The notes under the pieces were generated by a model. The model was given only the letters and a program-made list of their open reading frames with translations. It had not been told where the DNA came from and ran no database searches. Below, piece by piece: positions 27,938 to 35,986 of a stretch of 64,000 nucleotides of DNA. Source of the DNA: Microvirga splendida (GTDB lineage: Bacteria > Pseudomonadota > Alphaproteobacteria > Rhizobiales > Beijerinckiaceae); contig NZ_JAELXT010000006.1 of NCBI RefSeq assembly GCF_016427565.1, positions 124,001 to 188,000 on the forward strand, written 5' to 3'. The position numbers and the translations under genes were made by a program. Position 1 is the first letter of the stretch. Each line of letters starts with the position of its first letter.

Positions 27938-28166
27938 GCACCCTTGATAGGTTCTCATTGGCTCATTCGGCCTGACCAGCAACGCCTCGTTGTCTCGATA
28001 CTTGCCCTCCGCAGCGCCAGCGTTACGGCCAAGGTGCCGTAGCACACATGCAACATGCCGTAAGGAAAGTATGTCTGATCAAAGAAGTGATGCCTGAACA
28101 ATAGGGCATTTCTTCAATGCTCCGCTATAGGGAGCAGTAATCGAATCGCCAATGGGGATAAATAGA

Positions 28167-30341
28167 ATGGGAACTCCTGTATTTTGGGGCACAGACATCT
28201 ACGTCAGTGGGCTGGGAGATCACGACCAGCCACATATTACGGCCTTGGCTGATGGCCGTTTCGTGATGGCCTGGGTCGATAACACCACGCAGGAAATCCG
28301 GGCGCAGATCCTCAATGCCGACGGATCGATCCGGGGAGGGCAGTTCACCCTCAATACAATCTCAGCAGGCGAGCAGCAGCTCCCCAATATTCTGGCCTTG
28401 GCGGATGGGCGGTTCGTAGCCGTCTGGACGGATCAGAGCGCCTCTCAATACGATGACGGTGCCACGTATTCGGGCGACTACGCTGACGTCTTCGGACAGA
28501 TTTTCAGCATCGACGGCGTAAAGATCGGCAGTTCCTTCAAGGTCAATGAGGGCGCAACGCCGACTCATGCCTCAGATAAGCCTAGCATCACGGCTCTCAG
28601 TGGCGGCGGATTTGCCGTGACCTGGCGCGATTACAATCTGCCCGATCCGGACTCGTCCTGGGCGGACATATGGGTTGCCGCCTACAATAGCGATGGTAGC
28701 TCCGCCGGGGCTCCGACGTCGATTGTCAGGACTGCGGATGACGAGAACGTAAAGCCGATCATCCAGGGCCTCGACGGCGGCAAGGCCATCGTCCTCTGGA
28801 CTGACGGAACCAACACCAACGCCATCAACCTGTTTGGACGGATCATCGATGCCAACGGCAATGAGGTAAACGATCTGGGCAACATCGGATTGCCCCGCGC
28901 CGATTCCGAGAACGTCGTTCAGATCGACCCGCAGATCACCAGGCTGAAGGACGGCGGCTTCGTCGTCACCTGGAAGGTTCGCGACCCGGCCATCGATTCC
29001 ATTGAGCGGTACGCGGTCTGGGCACGTGTGTTCAAAGCCGACGGGACGGGAGCCGACATGTTCGAGGTCAGCCCCTCGACCAATGGAGGCGTAGAGGTGG
29101 ATCCGGTGGTGACCGCGTTCAATGACGGGCGATTCATGATCACCTGGGCTGATTACCAAAGCTACGGCTCGCTGAGCACGGAAGTGAAGAGCCAAGTCTA
29201 CACGGCTTCCGGTGCGAAGGACGGTGGAATTTTCACGGTGAATGCGCCAGATAGCGCGAACGACCGCATGCCTAGCATCACGACCCTTGAGGACGGCCGC
29301 GTGGCGGTCGGCTGGTGGCATGACGGCGAGCCGACGATCCGGGTGAAGATCATCGATCCGCGTGAGGCGGCCATCGAGCTCTCGGCCAGAACCCTCACCG
29401 CACAAAAGCTGGCGCTCAGCAACGACTGGGTCGGCACAGGCTTTGGGGATATCCTCGAGGCCGGGCTCGGGAACGACCAGATCGAAGGCGGCGCTGGGGC
29501 AGATGTGATTGCCGGAGGCGACGGGTTCGACACGGTGAGCTTCGCCCATGCCGCGGCCGGCGTTGTAGCCAGCATGGCTGGGGGCACCGGCGGCGATGCC
29601 GCAGGCGACGTGTACTCGTCCATCGAGCACCTTTTGGGGTCGCATCACGCCGACACGTTCTACGGCAACGGAGTGGCGGTGCTGCAGGGCTCCGGCGGCA
29701 ACGATATCTATTATGTCAGCGGAGGCGATCAGGTGGTTGAGACTGCCGGCGGGGGCTACGACAAAGTTGTCGTGACCGGCACCAGCTATCGGCTCGATGC
29801 CGCCGCTGAGGTGGAGGAACTGCTGTTCGCCGGCGTCTCCAGCAGAAAGTCCTACAGCCTCACCGGGTCCAGTGCAGCCAACACCATGAAGGGGAGTGTG
29901 GGCAAGGACACCCTCAAGGGCCTGGATGGCAAGGACAAGCTTTACGGCGGGTCCGGCGATGATAAGCTCTATGGCGGTTCCGGCAATGACCTGCTGTCGG
30001 GCAGCAAGGGCAAGGACAGCTTCCTGTTCGACACGAAGCTCGGAACCTCCACGACCGACCGGAAGGTGAACTTCGACACCATCACGGACTTCTCGACGAA
30101 GGACGACACGATCCGGCTGGAGAACAAGATTTTTGCAAAGCTGAAGAAGACCGGCACGCTGAAGAAGGACTTCTTCGCCACCGGCACCAAGGCGATCGAT
30201 AAGAACGACTACATCGTCTACAACAAGAAGGCGGGTGTGCTGTCTTACGATGCCGATGGATCGGGCAGGGGCAAGGCGATTGAGTTCGCCCAGGTCAAGA
30301 AGGGGCTTGCCCTCTCGCATCTCGACATCTTCGTCATGTGA
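28167..30341 (+). CDS. RTX-type secreted protein with seven propeller-like repeats
   Basis: This 724-residue acidic protein has no signal peptide. Residues 24-385 contain seven repeats of the form I-T-x-L-x-D/G-G-R/G-F-x-x-x-W (starting near 24, 75, 141, 199, 257, 315 and 371), suggesting a seven-bladed beta-propeller. Two glycine-rich calcium-binding nonapeptide stretches follow, near 431-456 and 585-615 (KLYGGSGDDKLYGGSGNDLL). A C-terminal region (YDADGSGRGKAIEFAQV) is typical of type I secretion substrates in this order. The start at 28167 has GGGG nine bases upstream; 28152 does not. No dedicated RTX exporter is in the window. Confidence 0.85.
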   Translation: MGTPVFWGTDIYVSGLGDHDQPHITALADGRFVMAWVDNTTQEIRAQILNADGSIRGGQFTLNTISAGEQQLPNILALADGRFVAVWTDQSASQYDDGATYSGDYADVFGQIFSIDGVKIGSSFKVNEGATPTHASDKPSITALSGGGFAVTWRDYNLPDPDSSWADIWVAAYNSDGSSAGAPTSIVRTADDENVKPIIQGLDGGKAIVLWTDGTNTNAINLFGRIIDANGNEVNDLGNIGLPRADSENVVQIDPQITRLKDGGFVVTWKVRDPAIDSIERYAVWARVFKADGTGADMFEVSPSTNGGVEVDPVVTAFNDGRFMITWADYQSYGSLSTEVKSQVYTASGAKDGGIFTVNAPDSANDRMPSITTLEDGRVAVGWWHDGEPTIRVKIIDPREAAIELSARTLTAQKLALSNDWVGTGFGDILEAGLGNDQIEGGAGADVIAGGDGFDTVSFAHAAAGVVASMAGGTGGDAAGDVYSSIEHLLGSHHADTFYGNGVAVLQGSGGNDIYYVSGGDQVVETAGGGYDKVVVTGTSYRLDAAAEVEELLFAGVSSRKSYSLTGSSAANTMKGSVGKDTLKGLDGKDKLYGGSGDDKLYGGSGNDLLSGSKGKDSFLFDTKLGTSTTDRKVNFDTITDFSTKDDTIRLENKIFAKLKKTGTLKKDFFATGTKAIDKNDYIVYNKKAGVLSYDADGSGRGKAIEFAQVKKGLALSHLDIFVM

Positions 30342-31722: not shown

Positions 31723-31759
31723 TTGACACGGAAAGGAAAATAATAGTTACTTTGTATCA
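31723..31759 (+). promoter_or_regulatory. Possible promoter region of the first GG-leader peptide
   Basis: TTGACA at 31723-31728 fits a -35 hexamer, but no good -10 lies 16-18 bases on. TTGTATCA at 31752-31759 is shared with the region upstream of the second peptide gene at a similar distance (64 versus 59 bases before the ATG). The local sequence is AT-rich. Confidence 0.3.
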
Positions 31760-31815: not shown

Positions 31816-31947
31816 ATGAAGAAGAAGACACAGACCAGAACCAGCGAGAAGGGGCAGAAGGCCGTTGTCGAACTCAGCGAGAAGGAACTCGCCGGGGTCG
31901 CGGGCGGTCGCCGGATCATCGTCTATCAGACCACATCCTGCATCTGA
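31816..31947 (+). CDS. Double-glycine leader peptide precursor, 12-residue core
   Basis: A 43-residue peptide is encoded behind a very strong ribosome binding site (GGTGGGGAGG, five bases from the ATG). The leader is basic at first (MKKKTQTRT), then has the C39-peptidase recognition pattern VVELSEKELAGVAGG. Cleavage after Gly31 would release the core RRIIVYQTTSCI with a single Cys next to the C-terminus. The gene converges on the exporter genes and ends before the terminator at 32022. The core is short for a pore-forming bacteriocin, so a signal peptide or modified peptide is also possible. Confidence 0.75.
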   Translation: MKKKTQTRTSEKGQKAVVELSEKELAGVAGGRRIIVYQTTSCI

Positions 31948-32021
31948 CCTGGATTGAGCGGAGCGGCGGAGCAGGTGCGGATTCCGCGCAGGCTCCGCCG
32001 GATCTCCCTCGCAACCGGAAC

Positions 32022-32053
32022 AAGGCGCGGCTTTCTGGGAGCCGCGCCTTTTT
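32022..32053 (+). terminator. Rho-independent terminator after the first peptide gene
   Basis: AAGGCGCGGCT-TTCTGGG-AGCCGCGCCTT is a perfect eleven-pair stem followed by TTTCGTTT. It lies 75 bases past the peptide stop and 15 bases before the end of the converging transporter gene. Confidence 0.85.
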
Positions 32054-32067
32054 CGTTTCACGCAGGT

Positions 32068-34230
32068 TCAGGCCCGGCTGCCGAGGGAATGGCGGGCCGC
32101 TTCGGTGAAGGCCAGTGCCTCCCCGTCCATCGGCGGGGAGACCCGGCCCTCGCGCAGCACCACGATCCGGTCCGCCGCGCGGATCGTCTCGGGCCGATGG
32201 GCGATGACGATGCGGGTGATCCTCAGCTCCGCGAGCGACCGGTTCACCTCGCGCTCCTTGTCGAGGTCGAGGCTCGACGTGCCCTCGTCCATGAACAGCA
32301 TGCGCGGCCTGCGGTAGAGGGCGCGTGCCAGCATCACCCGCTGGCGCTGCCCGCCGGACAGGGTGGTGCCCATGTCGCCGATGAGCGTGTTGTAGTTCAT
32401 GGGCATGGCCATGATCTCGTCGTCGATCCCGGCGATCCTGGCGCAGTCGCGCATCCAGTCGAGATCGAGCGTGGCGTCGAAGAAGCAGATGTTCTCGGCG
32501 ATGCTCCCCGAGAGCAACTGGTCGTCCTGCATCACCACGCCGATCTGCTGGCGGAACGCCTGGGTGCCGAAATGCGCGAGCGGCGTGCCATCGATCAGCA
32601 CTGCGCCCTCCAGGGGCTTGAACAGGCCGAGCATGACCTTGAGCAACGTGGTCTTGCCGCCGCCGGACGGCCCGGTGATGGCCACGAACTCGCCGGCCTC
32701 CACTTTGAGATCCACGCCCGACAGCACCTCCGGCTCCGTATCCGCATAGCGGAAACCGACGCCCTTCAGCTCGACGAACCCGGCGATCGGCCGCGCCACG
32801 AGGCTGTCGCCATGCCGGTCCTCCTCGCGCTCGGAGAGCGCGATATCGGAGAGGCGGTCGAGATGCAGGTCGAGCATGCGGACCTGGATGCCGGTCTCGA
32901 TCAGGGTGGTGGCCTTGGAGAGGAACTGCTCCTTGTAGGCCATGAAGGCATAGAGCATGCCGATGGTCATGTCGTTGGCCATGATGGCCCTGGCGCCGAG
33001 CCAGACCACGAGCACGTTCTCGATGCCATAGATCAGGTCGTTGGCGGTCTTGAACCCGATGGTGAAGCGGCCCTGGCGGATGCCGCGGCTGATCGAAGCC
33101 GCATAGCGGTTCTGCCACAGGGCCTCCCGGTCGGCTTCGCGTCCGAAGATCTTGATGCTCTGGATGGCGCGGGCCGTCTCGATGAAGGTGGTCTGCTCCC
33201 TGGCGTCGGCCTCGATCATCTCCTCCTGCCGCTGGCGCAGGGAGCGGTACAGGGCAAAGCGTAAGGCGGCGTAGAGCGCCAGCGCGGCGAAGACGATGCC
33301 TGACAGCGTGGGGCTGTAGATCAGGATCATGGCCAGGGTCAGCGTCGCCATCACCCCGTCGACGAAAGCGGCCACCAGCCCCTCGGAAACCAGCTTCTGG
33401 ATCGGCTCCGCCGAGCGGAAGCGCGAGACGAGATCGCCGATATGCCGCTTCTCGAACCAGCCCAGGGGCAGGCGCACGAGATGGTGGAAGAGGTTGGCGC
33501 CCATCTGGAAATTGAGCGCGCCGCTCAAGAACAGCAGCACATGCGAGCGCAGCCAGTCCGCCCCGATATGGATGAGGGTGAGCAGGCCGAAGCCCAGCGC
33601 CAGCGCCGTGAGCAGGCCCCCATCGCCCTTCATCACCGCCTCGTCGACGGCGAGCTGCATGTAGAAGGGCGCTGCGAGGACCGCGAGCTGCAGAACCGCC
33701 GACAGCACCAGCGCCTGGGCCAGGGCTCGCTTGATCCCCCGCATCCGCCCCCACAGGGCCGTGAGGGCCAGGCGCGAGCGTTCCTTCCTGCGCTCGAAGC
33801 CCTGCGTCGGGGTCAGCTCCAGGGCAACGCCCGTGAAGTGGCGGCTGACCTCGTCCAGGGTAAGGGTGCGAACGCCGAGAGCCGGGTCGTGGATCGTCAC
33901 CTTGCGGGCGCCGACCTCCTTCAGCACCACGAAATGGCTCATGTCCCAATGCAGGATGCAGGGCAGCTTGATCTCGCCCAGTTGCTCGGGCTCCAGCCGC
34001 AGGCCCCGCCCGGTCATGCCGAGGCGCTGGCCCATGGCCAGCACGTCCTTGAGGGTCACGCCCTTCAGCGAGATCGAGAACAGCCGGCGCAGGGCGGCGA
34101 GATCCACCTCGCGGCCGTGATAGCTCGCGATCATGGCCAGGCACGCCAGCCCGCACTCCGCCGCCTCCGACTGCATGATGGCCGGCAGGCGCGGCGCGCC
34201 GAAGAAGTCGAGGCGGGCGGAGAGCGTCAC
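32068..34230 (-). CDS. CvaB-like ABC exporter with N-terminal C39 peptidase
   Basis: This 720-residue peptidase-containing ABC transporter has three parts. The C39 domain (1-125) has catalytic C26 (QSEAAECGLACLAMI), H99 (SHFVVL) and D115 (HDPALG). The transmembrane domain spans about 160-435. The ATPase has Walker A GPSGGGKTT (520-528), signature LSGGQRQR (624-631) and Walker B MLFMDE. It should cut leaders after Gly-Gly and pump cores out with the adjacent adaptor and an outer-membrane channel not seen here. The start is GTG 34230, overlapping the adaptor stop (GTGA); the frame stays open upstream, but that part is antisense-like noise. Confidence 0.92.
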   Translation of the reverse strand: MTLSARLDFFGAPRLPAIMQSEAAECGLACLAMIASYHGREVDLAALRRLFSISLKGVTLKDVLAMGQRLGMTGRGLRLEPEQLGEIKLPCILHWDMSHFVVLKEVGARKVTIHDPALGVRTLTLDEVSRHFTGVALELTPTQGFERRKERSRLALTALWGRMRGIKRALAQALVLSAVLQLAVLAAPFYMQLAVDEAVMKGDGGLLTALALGFGLLTLIHIGADWLRSHVLLFLSGALNFQMGANLFHHLVRLPLGWFEKRHIGDLVSRFRSAEPIQKLVSEGLVAAFVDGVMATLTLAMILIYSPTLSGIVFAALALYAALRFALYRSLRQRQEEMIEADAREQTTFIETARAIQSIKIFGREADREALWQNRYAASISRGIRQGRFTIGFKTANDLIYGIENVLVVWLGARAIMANDMTIGMLYAFMAYKEQFLSKATTLIETGIQVRMLDLHLDRLSDIALSEREEDRHGDSLVARPIAGFVELKGVGFRYADTEPEVLSGVDLKVEAGEFVAITGPSGGGKTTLLKVMLGLFKPLEGAVLIDGTPLAHFGTQAFRQQIGVVMQDDQLLSGSIAENICFFDATLDLDWMRDCARIAGIDDEIMAMPMNYNTLIGDMGTTLSGGQRQRVMLARALYRRPRMLFMDEGTSSLDLDKEREVNRSLAELRITRIVIAHRPETIRAADRIVVLREGRVSPPMDGEALAFTEAARHSLGSRA

Positions 34231-35477
34231 ATCCGCCCCCTGACGCTGATGAGCGGCTCGAACAGCCAGGCGACGAGGGAGCGGCCCTCCAGCACGATGT
34301 CGGCCTTGAGGGTCATGTCGGGCTGGAGGGCGACCTGACGCCCGAAGGCCTCCACGTCCTGGCGGTCGAGGCGCACGGTGACCCGGTACGCGGGTTCGGT
34401 CAGCGGGACCTTCCCGATCACCTCGTTGGGCAGGAGCACCGCCTGGGACACGGTCTCGACGGTTCCACCCTGCGTGCCGAAGCGCTGGTAGGGGAAGGCG
34501 TCCACCATCAGGCGCACCCGCTGCCCGGCCTCGACGAAGCCGATGGCGCGGCTCGGCACGAAAAGCTCCGCCAGCAGGCCCGCGCCTTCGGGCAGTATGG
34601 TGAGAAGCGGCCGGTTCGGATCGACGATCTGGCCGGGCATGACCTGGAGGGCGGTGACACGCCCGGCGATGGGGGCTGTGACCACCTGCGCCCGCTGCGC
34701 CTGGGCCTCTGCCTGCTGGCGCTCCTTGTCGGCAAGGTTCAGGCGCAGCTGCGCCACGCGCTCGGCCTGCTGCACCGGCAGCTGCTCCCGCTGAAGCTCG
34801 GTCTGGCCCAGCTCCTTCTCGGCCGCCGCCAGCTCCCGGTCGAGTTCGGCGAGCGCCTGGCGGCGGGCGAGCAGCGCCTCGTCCTGCTCCTGCAGCGCGG
34901 CCCGGGTGGTGTGGCCTTGTTGGGCAAGGCCTGCGACGGCGTCCCGCCGCTCCTCCGTCACCCGGATGCGCTCGGCCATGAGCCGCCGCTGAGCGGCCAG
35001 TGCAGCCCGCTCGGCCGCTACGGCGGCGATGGCCGCGTCGAGGCGCAGGACCTCGTTGGCCGTGCGGGCCGGGTCGGCGGCGATCTGGTCGCGGAGCACC
35101 CGCACCTGGGTTTCCAGGGAGGCGAGGATCGCCCCGTCCAGGGTGCCGCCGGCCTCGAGGCCCTGGGCCGACGCGACAGTGAAGAGGGGCTGGCCCGCCT
35201 CGACCCGGTCGCCGTCCCGGACCTTGAGGTCCGAGACCACGCCGCCGCGCATGGCCGCGATGCGCACCGCGCCGCCCGCCGCCACGAGAGCGCCGCTCGC
35301 GGTCTCCTTGCGGGCATATTCCGCCGTGCCGAGAAAGCCTACGACGGTTGCCGTGCAGGCGATCAGAAATGCCCCTAGGAGCCGCCACGAGAAGGGCGCA
35401 ACCGGCAGCGACACGGACGAATGCTCGCCCGAGGCTGCCGCGATGGCCTGCGGCCTGAATAAGGATTGATGCGCCAC
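34227..35477 (-). CDS. CvaA/HlyD-type membrane fusion protein of the peptide exporter
   Basis: This 416-residue adaptor starts MAHQSLFRPQAIAAASG (GTG at 35477 behind GGGGACGGG). One transmembrane helix lies at about 30-50, then a lipoyl-like half (RIAAMRGGVVSDLKVRDGDRVEAGQPL), a long helical hairpin (about 110-260, rich in Glu/Ala/Gln/Arg), the second lipoyl half (VTAPIAGRVTALQV) and a beta-barrel. The FRPQA opening is typical of colicin V-type adaptors (CvaA). It is the first gene of a two-gene operon with the C39 transporter, which overlaps its stop. Confidence 0.88.
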   Translation of the reverse strand: MAHQSLFRPQAIAAASGEHSSVSLPVAPFSWRLLGAFLIACTATVVGFLGTAEYARKETASGALVAAGGAVRIAAMRGGVVSDLKVRDGDRVEAGQPLFTVASAQGLEAGGTLDGAILASLETQVRVLRDQIAADPARTANEVLRLDAAIAAVAAERAALAAQRRLMAERIRVTEERRDAVAGLAQQGHTTRAALQEQDEALLARRQALAELDRELAAAEKELGQTELQREQLPVQQAERVAQLRLNLADKERQQAEAQAQRAQVVTAPIAGRVTALQVMPGQIVDPNRPLLTILPEGAGLLAELFVPSRAIGFVEAGQRVRLMVDAFPYQRFGTQGGTVETVSQAVLLPNEVIGKVPLTEPAYRVTVRLDRQDVEAFGRQVALQPDMTLKADIVLEGRSLVAWLFEPLISVRGRM

Positions 35478-35620
35478 CCCGTCCCCTAACGCAACAAAGC
35501 AACGTTATGATGTTGCAGAAAGACCGGGATCGCACAAGGGAGTTCATCGGTTCGGTGATTCCAAAGCGGCCGGTGCGGCGGTTCTGTCGCAGGGCTCTTG
35601 TCTCTCCCCAATGTGTGACA

Positions 35621-35647
35621 TTGTATCAAGTTGCTGTTCTCAAGAAC
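35621..35647 (+). promoter_or_regulatory. Possible control region of the second GG-leader peptide
   Basis: TTGTATCA (35621-35628) is shared with the first peptide's upstream region; TTGTCT at about 35599 would sit 17 bases before it as a -35. A palindrome GTTCTCAAGAAC (35636-35647) follows, where an operator near the transcription start could lie. This is pattern-based only. Confidence 0.3.
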
Positions 35648-35679
35648 TCAGATCACCGGAACAGCCAAGGGAGAACATC

Positions 35680-35901
35680 ATGTCGAATATCCAAGTCTTG
35701 ACCGAGGAGTGCCTCGGCGTCGTGGCGGGCGGAAAAAGCCGCTGCGACCGGCCGCCGGGCATCAACCACGCTGAGCTCTACGCCTGGTCGACCTTCTGCG
35801 CGAACCTGCACGGCGGAGGCTGGCGGGAGTGGTACATCTACGGCCACGACATGCTGTCGGCCGAGCAGCGGCAGCCCAAGAAGGAGCCGAAGAGGCCCTG
35901 A
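35680..35901 (+). CDS. Double-glycine leader peptide precursor, two-cysteine core
   Basis: This 73-residue precursor starts at ATG 35680 with AAGGGAG six bases upstream; a longer frame to 35611 lacks such a site. The leader is MSNIQVLTEECLGVVAGG (18 residues), close in length and pattern to colicin V-type leaders. The predicted 55-residue core has two cysteines about 18 apart (KSRCDRPP and STFCANLHGGG), an aromatic centre (WREWYIYGHD) and a basic tail (KKEPKRP). It is divergent from the exporter operon and is likely its substrate. No homologue is recognised. Confidence 0.75.
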   Translation: MSNIQVLTEECLGVVAGGKSRCDRPPGINHAELYAWSTFCANLHGGGWREWYIYGHDMLSAEQRQPKKEPKRP

Positions 35902-35960: not shown

Positions 35961-35986
35961 AGACGGCGCCTCGATCGGCGCCGTCT
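35961..35986. terminator. Hairpin between the second peptide gene and the converging gene
   Basis: AGACGGCGCC-TCGATC-GGCGCCGTCT forms a perfect ten-pair stem, 59 bases past the peptide stop and adjoining the end of the leftward gene. Only a weak T-run follows (CCATTT). Confidence 0.65.

What the first reader, a model, noticed from the sequence alone, without database searches (positions are those of the whole stretch)
31816..35901. Colicin V-type exporter flanked by two unrelated double-glycine peptide genes
A C39-peptidase ABC transporter with an intact Cys-His-Asp triad and its CvaA-like adaptor overlap as an operon. Each end of the locus carries a small gene whose product ends its leader in VAGG, preceded by an L-(S/T)-E-x-x-L pattern. 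Both genes have strong ribosome binding sites and hairpins after them. The cores differ completely (12 versus 55 residues). Transporters of this type cut leaders after Gly-Gly and export the core, so this is a likely two-substrate bacteriocin or peptide-signal system. I know of no described system with this layout. No immunity gene or modification enzyme is evident.
Basis: partly seen in the sequence, partly recalled or inferred. Interest (0 to 1): 0.85.

Follow-up and report, generated by a model that had tools for sequence, protein, structure and literature searches.

The report
Exporter with tiny conserved secreted peptide
A soil bacterium carries a pump that probably cuts and exports a tiny peptide whose six-letter core has been kept almost unchanged across related species, which looks more like a chemical message than an antibiotic, although the receiver is not known.

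Summary
A Microvirga genome carries an intact C39 (colicin V-type) exporter and HlyD adaptor overlapping by 4 bp, with a double-glycine (GG) peptide gene at each end. The two peptides are not equals. P1 (31816-31947) is found in 15 of 48 genomes of the genus, each time between rnd and the exporter's 3' end. Its core begins RR[IV]I[VLIM][YH]; in six genomes nothing follows that hexapeptide. P2 (35680-35901) was found in one other genome, frameshifted there; different long-core GG peptides lie at its place in seven others. A second tiny-core family, P3 (RKVNEYEGQHR), occurs in 7 of 48 genomes, all with the exporter and without P1. P1 or P3 occurs in 22 of 26 genomes with a close exporter and in 0 of 22 others; one exporter subclade lost P1, and two of its three members carry P3. 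Best reading: export of a short peptide, probably a signal, plus an optional larger GG peptide; a bacteriocin is unlikely for P1. No receptor was found. In Burkholderiaceae a tiny GG peptide ending P-x-x-x-W lies between a LuxR-type regulator and an HlyD adaptor, which supports signalling by analogy only. New variant of a known kind.

The parts
31816..31947 (+). P1: GG-leader precursor, 43 aa, core RRIIVYQTTSCI
   Evidence: in 15 of 48 genus genomes counting this one
31723..31759 (+). P1 upstream element: TTGACA ... GTTAC, then TTGTATCA (31752-31759)
   Evidence: aligned across 15 P1 loci; TTGTATCA occurs twice in the window, 0.15 expected (motif chosen after the fact)
32022..32050 (+). 13-pair terminator-like hairpin between P1 and the exporter's 3' end
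   Evidence: 3 such sites in the region, 2.3 expected in shuffles; a similar GC-rich stem is seen by eye in most P1 loci aligned
32068..34230 (-). C39-peptidase ABC exporter (PCAT), 720 aa from GTG
34227..35477 (-). HlyD/CvaA-type adaptor, 416 aa, overlaps the exporter by GTGA
35499..35516 (-). Dyad GCAACAT-CATA-ACGTTGC upstream of the adaptor; operator-like, function unknown
   Evidence: related half-sites upstream of the adaptor in many relatives (by eye)
35621..35628 (+). TTGTATCA upstream of P2, 59 nt before its ATG (64 nt for P1)
35680..35901 (+). P2: GG-leader precursor, 73 aa, 55-aa core; accessory
35961..35986 (+). 10-bp hairpin after P2, no T run
   Evidence: read by eye; not listed

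Best explanation
A peptide export module whose main cargo is a tiny linear peptide. P1 is made with a GG leader; the C39 domain cuts after Gly-Gly; the ABC exporter and HlyD adaptor, with a TolC-type channel encoded elsewhere, release RRIIVYQTTSCI (in six relatives only RRIILY or RRVILY, or one Gly more, since their leaders end GGG). The most likely role is a self-made extracellular signal: one hexapeptide motif is kept while its flanks vary, one exporter lineage carries another fixed tiny peptide (P3) instead, and no immunity or modification gene is seen. P2 is an optional second, larger GG cargo. Shown by sequence: gene reality, leader features, conserved core, co-occurrence with the exporter, P1/P3 alternation. 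Inferred: cutting, export, signalling. Unknown: the receptor.
For: P1 in 15 of 48 genus genomes, all with the exporter, all in the same rnd-exporter gap. Core hexapeptide pN/pS 0.15, last 12 leader codons 0.29, 15 genes. P3 in 7 of 48 genomes, all with the exporter and none with P1, near its adaptor in two, 12-16 kb away in three, on another contig in two. P1 or P3 in 22 of 26 genomes with an exporter of 66% identity or more and 0 of 22 others. The exporter tree places a subclade with P3 or nothing inside the P1 clade, with the P1 frame gone from its gap. One exporter at E 1e-100 or better in the own genome and no GG leader below E 1 other than P1 and P2. TolC-type proteins present. Leaders meet the published PCAT rule. 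Analogy: of 30 LuxR loci read in a Burkholderiaceae sample, 27 have a GG precursor with a P-x-x-x-W end directly downstream and 22 an adaptor next, 21 both.
Against: No receptor or regulator at the locus. LuxR-type genes are in 44 of 48 genus genomes whether or not the exporter is present, and are missing from one P3 genome, so they do not point to a receptor. 4 of 26 exporter-bearing genomes have neither P1 nor P3 (three have a long-core GG peptide; one has an adaptor that seems to lack an internal stretch). P1 tails after the hexapeptide vary from 0 to 10 residues and two precursors have 3-4 residues before it, which is odd for a precise ligand. The fork that unites the P1 clade in the tree is not well supported, and one P1 genome (G011) falls outside it. 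Genomes are related, so the counts are not independent. No expression or mass-spectrometry data.
Confidence: 0.5

Rival explanations
1. P1 is the precursor of a modified peptide (RiPP): an enzyme encoded elsewhere modifies the RRIIVY core before export.
For: Conserved tiny core with an aromatic end; weak leader resemblance to lantibiotic leaders, below cut-off (E 0.0074).
Against: The P1 gap is bounded by rnd and the exporter, and the adaptor is followed by a WYL-like gene in the P1 loci where both flanks are held; no enzyme was recognised there, nor at the four P3 loci with common flanks (frames read by eye, not searched for families). No Cys, Ser or Thr in the conserved hexapeptide.
Confidence: 0.17
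2. P1 and P2 form a bacteriocin system (class II microcin-like), P2 being the toxin and P1 an inducer or second peptide.
For: Exporter type; P2 core of 55 aa, sporadic as bacteriocins are; TTGTATCA shared by both upstream regions.
Against: No immunity gene seen; P1 core conserved, not diversifying; 13 of 15 P1 genomes lack P2; P2 frameshifted in one relative.
Confidence: 0.15
3. P1/P3 peptides act outside as structural or host-directed factors (biofilm, plant interaction) rather than as a self-signal.
For: GG peptides enable biofilm in Synechococcus (PMC4997328, abstract in the listings); the genus includes root-nodule species (recalled).
Against: Nothing here tests this directly; the size is very small for a structural role (inference).
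Confidence: 0.12
4. P1 is a decoy or regulator of the peptidase domain and is not exported.
For: Key leader residues are as conserved as the core.
Against: The core ratio pN/pS is lower than the leader's (short stretches), and P3 keeps its core while its leader drifts.
Confidence: 0.05

Closest known systems
CvaAB/TolC colicin V and class II microcin export systems
   Same: C39 exporter, HlyD-type adaptor, GG leader, TolC elsewhere
   Different: No immunity gene seen; P1 precursor 43 aa with a short conserved core, against 75-120 aa precursors and highly variable cores (PMC9746304, passages)
Streptococcal PCAT signal systems (ComAB/CSP, rtg locus)
   Same: GG-leader peptides cut and exported by a PCAT, several peptides per exporter, signalling use (PMC7018657, passages)
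   Different: Gram-negative exporter with HlyD adaptor; no sensor kinase or Rgg-type regulator at the locus; very short core (core sizes of the streptococcal signals are recalled)
HetC of Nostoc PCC 7120
   Same: C39 PCAT tied to developmental control, suggested exporter of regulatory peptides (PMC10986499, passages)
   Different: No GG precursor found near hetC according to that paper; here the precursor is adjacent and conserved
NHLP bacteriocin export ABC transporter (TIGR03796)
   Same: Best NCBIfam score for the exporter (529.6 bits)
   Different: Below the cut-off of 853.3 bits
LuxR + P-x-x-x-W GG peptide + adaptor loci of Burkholderiaceae (seen here)
   Same: Exporter family (48-50% identity in L100, L104, L112, L113), GG leader, tiny core
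   Different: Regulator adjacent; core sequence unrelated; tandem core copies in some

Membership tests
PCAT (C39 peptidase-containing ABC transporter) | C39 domain with Cys/His/Asp plus ABC membrane and ATPase domains | tested here: met
PCAT substrate (GG peptide) | Leader ending GG with hydrophobic residues at -4, -7, -12, -15 | tested here: met
   P1 V/L/L/V, P2 V/L/L/I read; rule from PMC7018657 (passage)
PCAT substrate (GG peptide) | Cut after GG and exported by this exporter | not testable with these tools
   needs biochemistry
Class II microcin | Precursor of about 75-120 aa | tested here: not met
   P1 43 aa (30-49 in relatives), P2 73 aa, just short (range from PMC9746304)
Class II microcin | Cognate immunity protein nearby | tested here: inconclusive
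   neighbours are rnd and a WYL-like protein and no small membrane protein was recognised; immunity genes share no sequence and no transmembrane prediction was run
Class II microcin | PCAT, MFP and TolC | tested here: met
NHLP export system | TIGR03796 above cut-off | tested here: not met
   529.6 against 853.3 bits
Lanthipeptide/RiPP | Modification enzyme with the precursor | tested here: not met
   none recognised at the locus; an unlinked enzyme cannot be excluded
Peptide pheromone system | Exported peptide sensed by a cognate receptor | tested here: inconclusive
   no adjacent receptor; LuxR genes not linked to the exporter's presence
Peptide pheromone system | Response to synthetic peptide | not testable with these tools
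   needs culture

The most novel reading that the evidence does not exclude
Microvirga uses linear peptides with cores of about 6 to 16 residues, of two alternative fixed types (RRIIVY and RKVNEYEGQHR) on one exporter lineage, as pheromones. Together with LuxR-linked P-x-x-x-W peptides of Burkholderiaceae this would be a broad, undescribed form of Gram-negative peptide quorum sensing built on C39/HlyD exporters.
Probability: 0.35. Interest if true: 0.88.

Novelty: new variant of a known kind. Interest (0 to 1): 0.64.

Why it matters
Peptide signals cut by C39 exporters are known from Gram-positive bacteria. For Gram-negative ones the HetC authors call functions beyond toxin export probable but without evidence (PMC10986499, passage). 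A fixed hexapeptide core, with a natural switch to a second peptide on the same exporter lineage, gives directly testable molecules: both cores can be synthesised and tested, and the exporter deleted.

Tried and rejected
P1 as a chance frame: rejected by the homologues, the conserved upstream region and the synonymous bias. P1 outside Microvirga: family sample 15 of 397 genomes at E 0.001, of which 14 are of the genus and G330 matches in the leader only (G033, which has P1, is not among those hits); order sample 4 of 397, the own genome and three others whose cores differ, one of them also with RR after GG. Curated families: nothing above cut-off for P1 and P2 in Pfam and NCBIfam, and no match up to E 0.1 in PHROGs; none for P3. 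A LuxR receptor by co-occurrence: not supported. A conserved enzyme or receptor beside non-adjacent P3: none recognised by eye; four of the five share one chromosomal site between a large frame conserved at 93-95% and a 121-aa gene. Literature: eight searches of the held library listed no paper on this system as judged from titles and abstract starts; the strings RRIIVY, NEYEGQH, PKGTW, APKSTW, PKGGW and PKNTW gave no paper. Most subscription papers and bioRxiv are not held.
Full report
What is there. The window lies in a 5.2 Mb genome, contig C59:124001-188000; the close relatives of its exporter are named Microvirga. The exporter (34230-32068, minus) has Peptidase_C39, ABC_membrane and ABC_tran domains and the adaptor (35477-34227, minus) has HlyD_3. 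They overlap by GTGA. By sequence the nearest solved relatives over the full length are bacteriocin-type PCATs (8vp3, 4ry2 and others); the C39 domain aligns best with 6mpz, with the Cys, His and Asp stretches in register. TolC-type proteins are elsewhere in the genome (7 PF02321 matches). P1 (31816-31947, plus) lies between rnd (RNase D) and the exporter's 3' end; P2 (35680-35901, plus) is divergent from the adaptor, next to a small WYL-like protein (weak match, E 0.085). Both leaders carry hydrophobic residues at -4, -7, -12 and -15, the positions given in PMC7018657 (passages read).

Chance. A leader profile made from 13 GG leaders of other genomes, without P1 and P2, ranks P1 first (E 0.0045) and P2 second (E 0.092) among 1305 open frames of the window; the third has E 2.3 (one search gave the same with one letter mistyped). 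Most of these 13 leaders come from the same genus. A 16-row profile that contains the P1 and P2 leaders finds only these two in the whole genome at E below 1; the next is E = 2 inside a 426-codon frame.

P1 is conserved. P1 is found in 15 of 48 genus genomes (the 15 with E of 7e-5 or better; seven more genomes have only hits at E above 0.05, which were not counted; G007 has two copies). All 15 have it in the gap between rnd and the exporter's 3' end; in G005 the exporter is split over two contigs and in G025 over two frames. The core begins RR[IV]I[VLIM][YH] in all 16 sequences aligned; AKKD precedes it in one and KCD in another, and 0 to 10 residues follow. In six precursors from six genomes the core is the hexapeptide alone, or one residue more if the cut falls one Gly earlier, since these leaders end in GGG. 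Over the hexapeptide codons of 15 genes pS is 0.475 and pN 0.072; over the last 12 leader codons 0.398 and 0.115 (18 and 36 nt only, related genomes). An upstream TTGAC...GTTA...TGTATCACTGG region is conserved across 15 loci, and a GC-rich stem after the gene in most, by eye. Beyond the genus only leader-type hits were seen: G330 in 397 family genomes and three in 397 order genomes.

P2 is accessory. A P2 relative exists in G032; there the leader and the core homology lie in different reading frames. Long-core GG peptides that the P2 search did not match sit on the adaptor side, divergent from the adaptor, in G011, G044, G015, G003, G009, G023 and G004. In the remaining P1 genomes I saw none there with the filters (the output was cut for L158-L165, which one search covered with a stricter filter). 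P2's function stays open; a bacteriocin is a fair guess.

A second tiny peptide. A precursor with core RKVNEYEGQH(R) was noticed near the exporter of M. antarctica and M. puerhi and found by profile in 7 of 48 genus genomes. The stretch RKVNEYEGQHR is identical in five; one lacks the last R and one has RQ for RK; LLT or MT precedes it in five. P3 is near the adaptor in G004 and G023, 12-16 kb from the exporter in G015, G041 and G045, and on another contig in G008 and G026; four of these last five share one chromosomal site. All 7 genomes have the exporter and lack P1. Exporters at 66% identity or more occur in 26 of 48 genomes: 15 have P1, 7 have P3, none has both, 4 have neither (G003, G009, G034, G044; all but G034 have a long-core GG peptide). 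None of the 22 others has P1 or P3, although six of them have a more distant C39 exporter (32-56%). If genomes were independent, the chance of all seven P3 genomes falling among the 11 exporter-bearing ones of the 33 without P1 would be 8e-5; they are not independent, so this is a guide only. In the exporter tree (28 rows; the split exporters of G005 and G025 and several distant ones left out) a well-supported subclade of G034, G045 and G026 lies within a P1 clade whose own fork is not well supported, and P1-bearing G011 falls outside that clade. In this subclade the P1 frame is gone from the rnd-exporter gap, with a TTGTT..CGTATC remnant by eye in two of the three; two members carry P3, and G034, with neither, has an adaptor that seems to lack about residues 98-267. 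The simplest reading is that one exporter lineage exchanged one tiny fixed cargo for another.

How it most likely works. Cutting after GG and export through exporter, adaptor and a TolC-type channel follow from the families. The product would be RRIIVYQTTSCI. Tiny size, strong constraint, no immunity or modification gene seen, and replacement by another fixed peptide favour a signal over a bacteriocin. TTGTATCA stands 64 and 59 nt before the P1 and P2 starts and nowhere else in the window (0.15 expected), which suggests joint control; the motif was picked after seeing it.

An analogy that supports signalling. Four Burkholderiales relatives of the exporter (48-50% identity) have a tiny GG peptide (LPKGGW.. 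or APKSTW.. twice) directly after a LuxR-type gene; Autoind_bind and GerE domains were confirmed by Pfam for two of the four (L112, L113), and the other two are about 66% identical to them. This regulator has a match at E 1e-50 or better in 80 of 299 genomes sampled from the family of G400. Of the 30 best loci read (two of them L112 and L113 again), 27 have a GG precursor directly downstream; 26 end in Trp, one in Trp-Gly, all with P-x-x-x-W, some with two or four copies. 22 of 30 have the adaptor next, 21 of them with a precursor. L259, L261 and L267 had no precursor by my filter. No such regulator lies in the Microvirga loci searched, and LuxR genes there do not track the exporter (44 of 48 genomes), so this is analogy, not membership.

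Against known systems. Class II microcin systems have five parts including immunity, precursors of 75-120 aa and variable cores (PMC9746304, passages): exporter parts met; precursor size and variability not met for P1; immunity not seen. NHLP exporter model: below cut-off. The HetC authors expect non-toxin roles for Gram-negative PCATs but report no substrate (PMC10986499, passages). No paper on this system was seen in searches.

Limits. Draft genomes, no expression data, no receptor, counts on related genomes, short coding stretches. One search kept the best 80 of 87 matches (76 loci). The genome could not be scanned as a file.

Noticed in passing
L100:4390-5416, L104:2499-3507, L112:4667-5653, L113:4668-5654 and loci L238-L239, L243-L270: In Burkholderiaceae a LuxR-type regulator is followed by a GG-leader precursor whose core ends P-x-x-x-W, sometimes in 2-4 tandem copies, then an HlyD adaptor (and the C39 exporter in the first four loci): a candidate peptide quorum-sensing system. 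27 of 30 loci read have the precursor. A 2015 survey of LuxR solos has no occurrence of 'bacteriocin' or 'HlyD' in its main text (PMC4338825, passages).
   Followed up: partly
L196-L202: P3, a GG peptide with core RKVNEYEGQH(R), in five of seven genomes not adjacent to its presumed exporter.
   Followed up: yes
window 35499-35516 and adaptor upstream regions of relatives: Dyads of the GCAACAT/ATGTTGC or TGAAACAT/ATTTCA kind before the adaptor in many loci, possibly one regulator's site (by eye).
   Followed up: no
L271 (G785): Three different GG-leader small frames in one stretch of about 3 kb from another family of the order; no exporter was looked for.
   Followed up: no
L194 (G330): Another GG-leader frame with a very short core (VRKSIR) in another genus of the family.
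   Followed up: no
window 28152-30341: 729-aa protein with RTX calcium-binding repeats (HemolysinCabind), a likely type I secretion substrate beside rnd.
   Followed up: no
L148 (G007): Two P1 paralogues in one gap, one with core RRIILY and one with RRIIMHDPCCIKCMSK.
   Followed up: no
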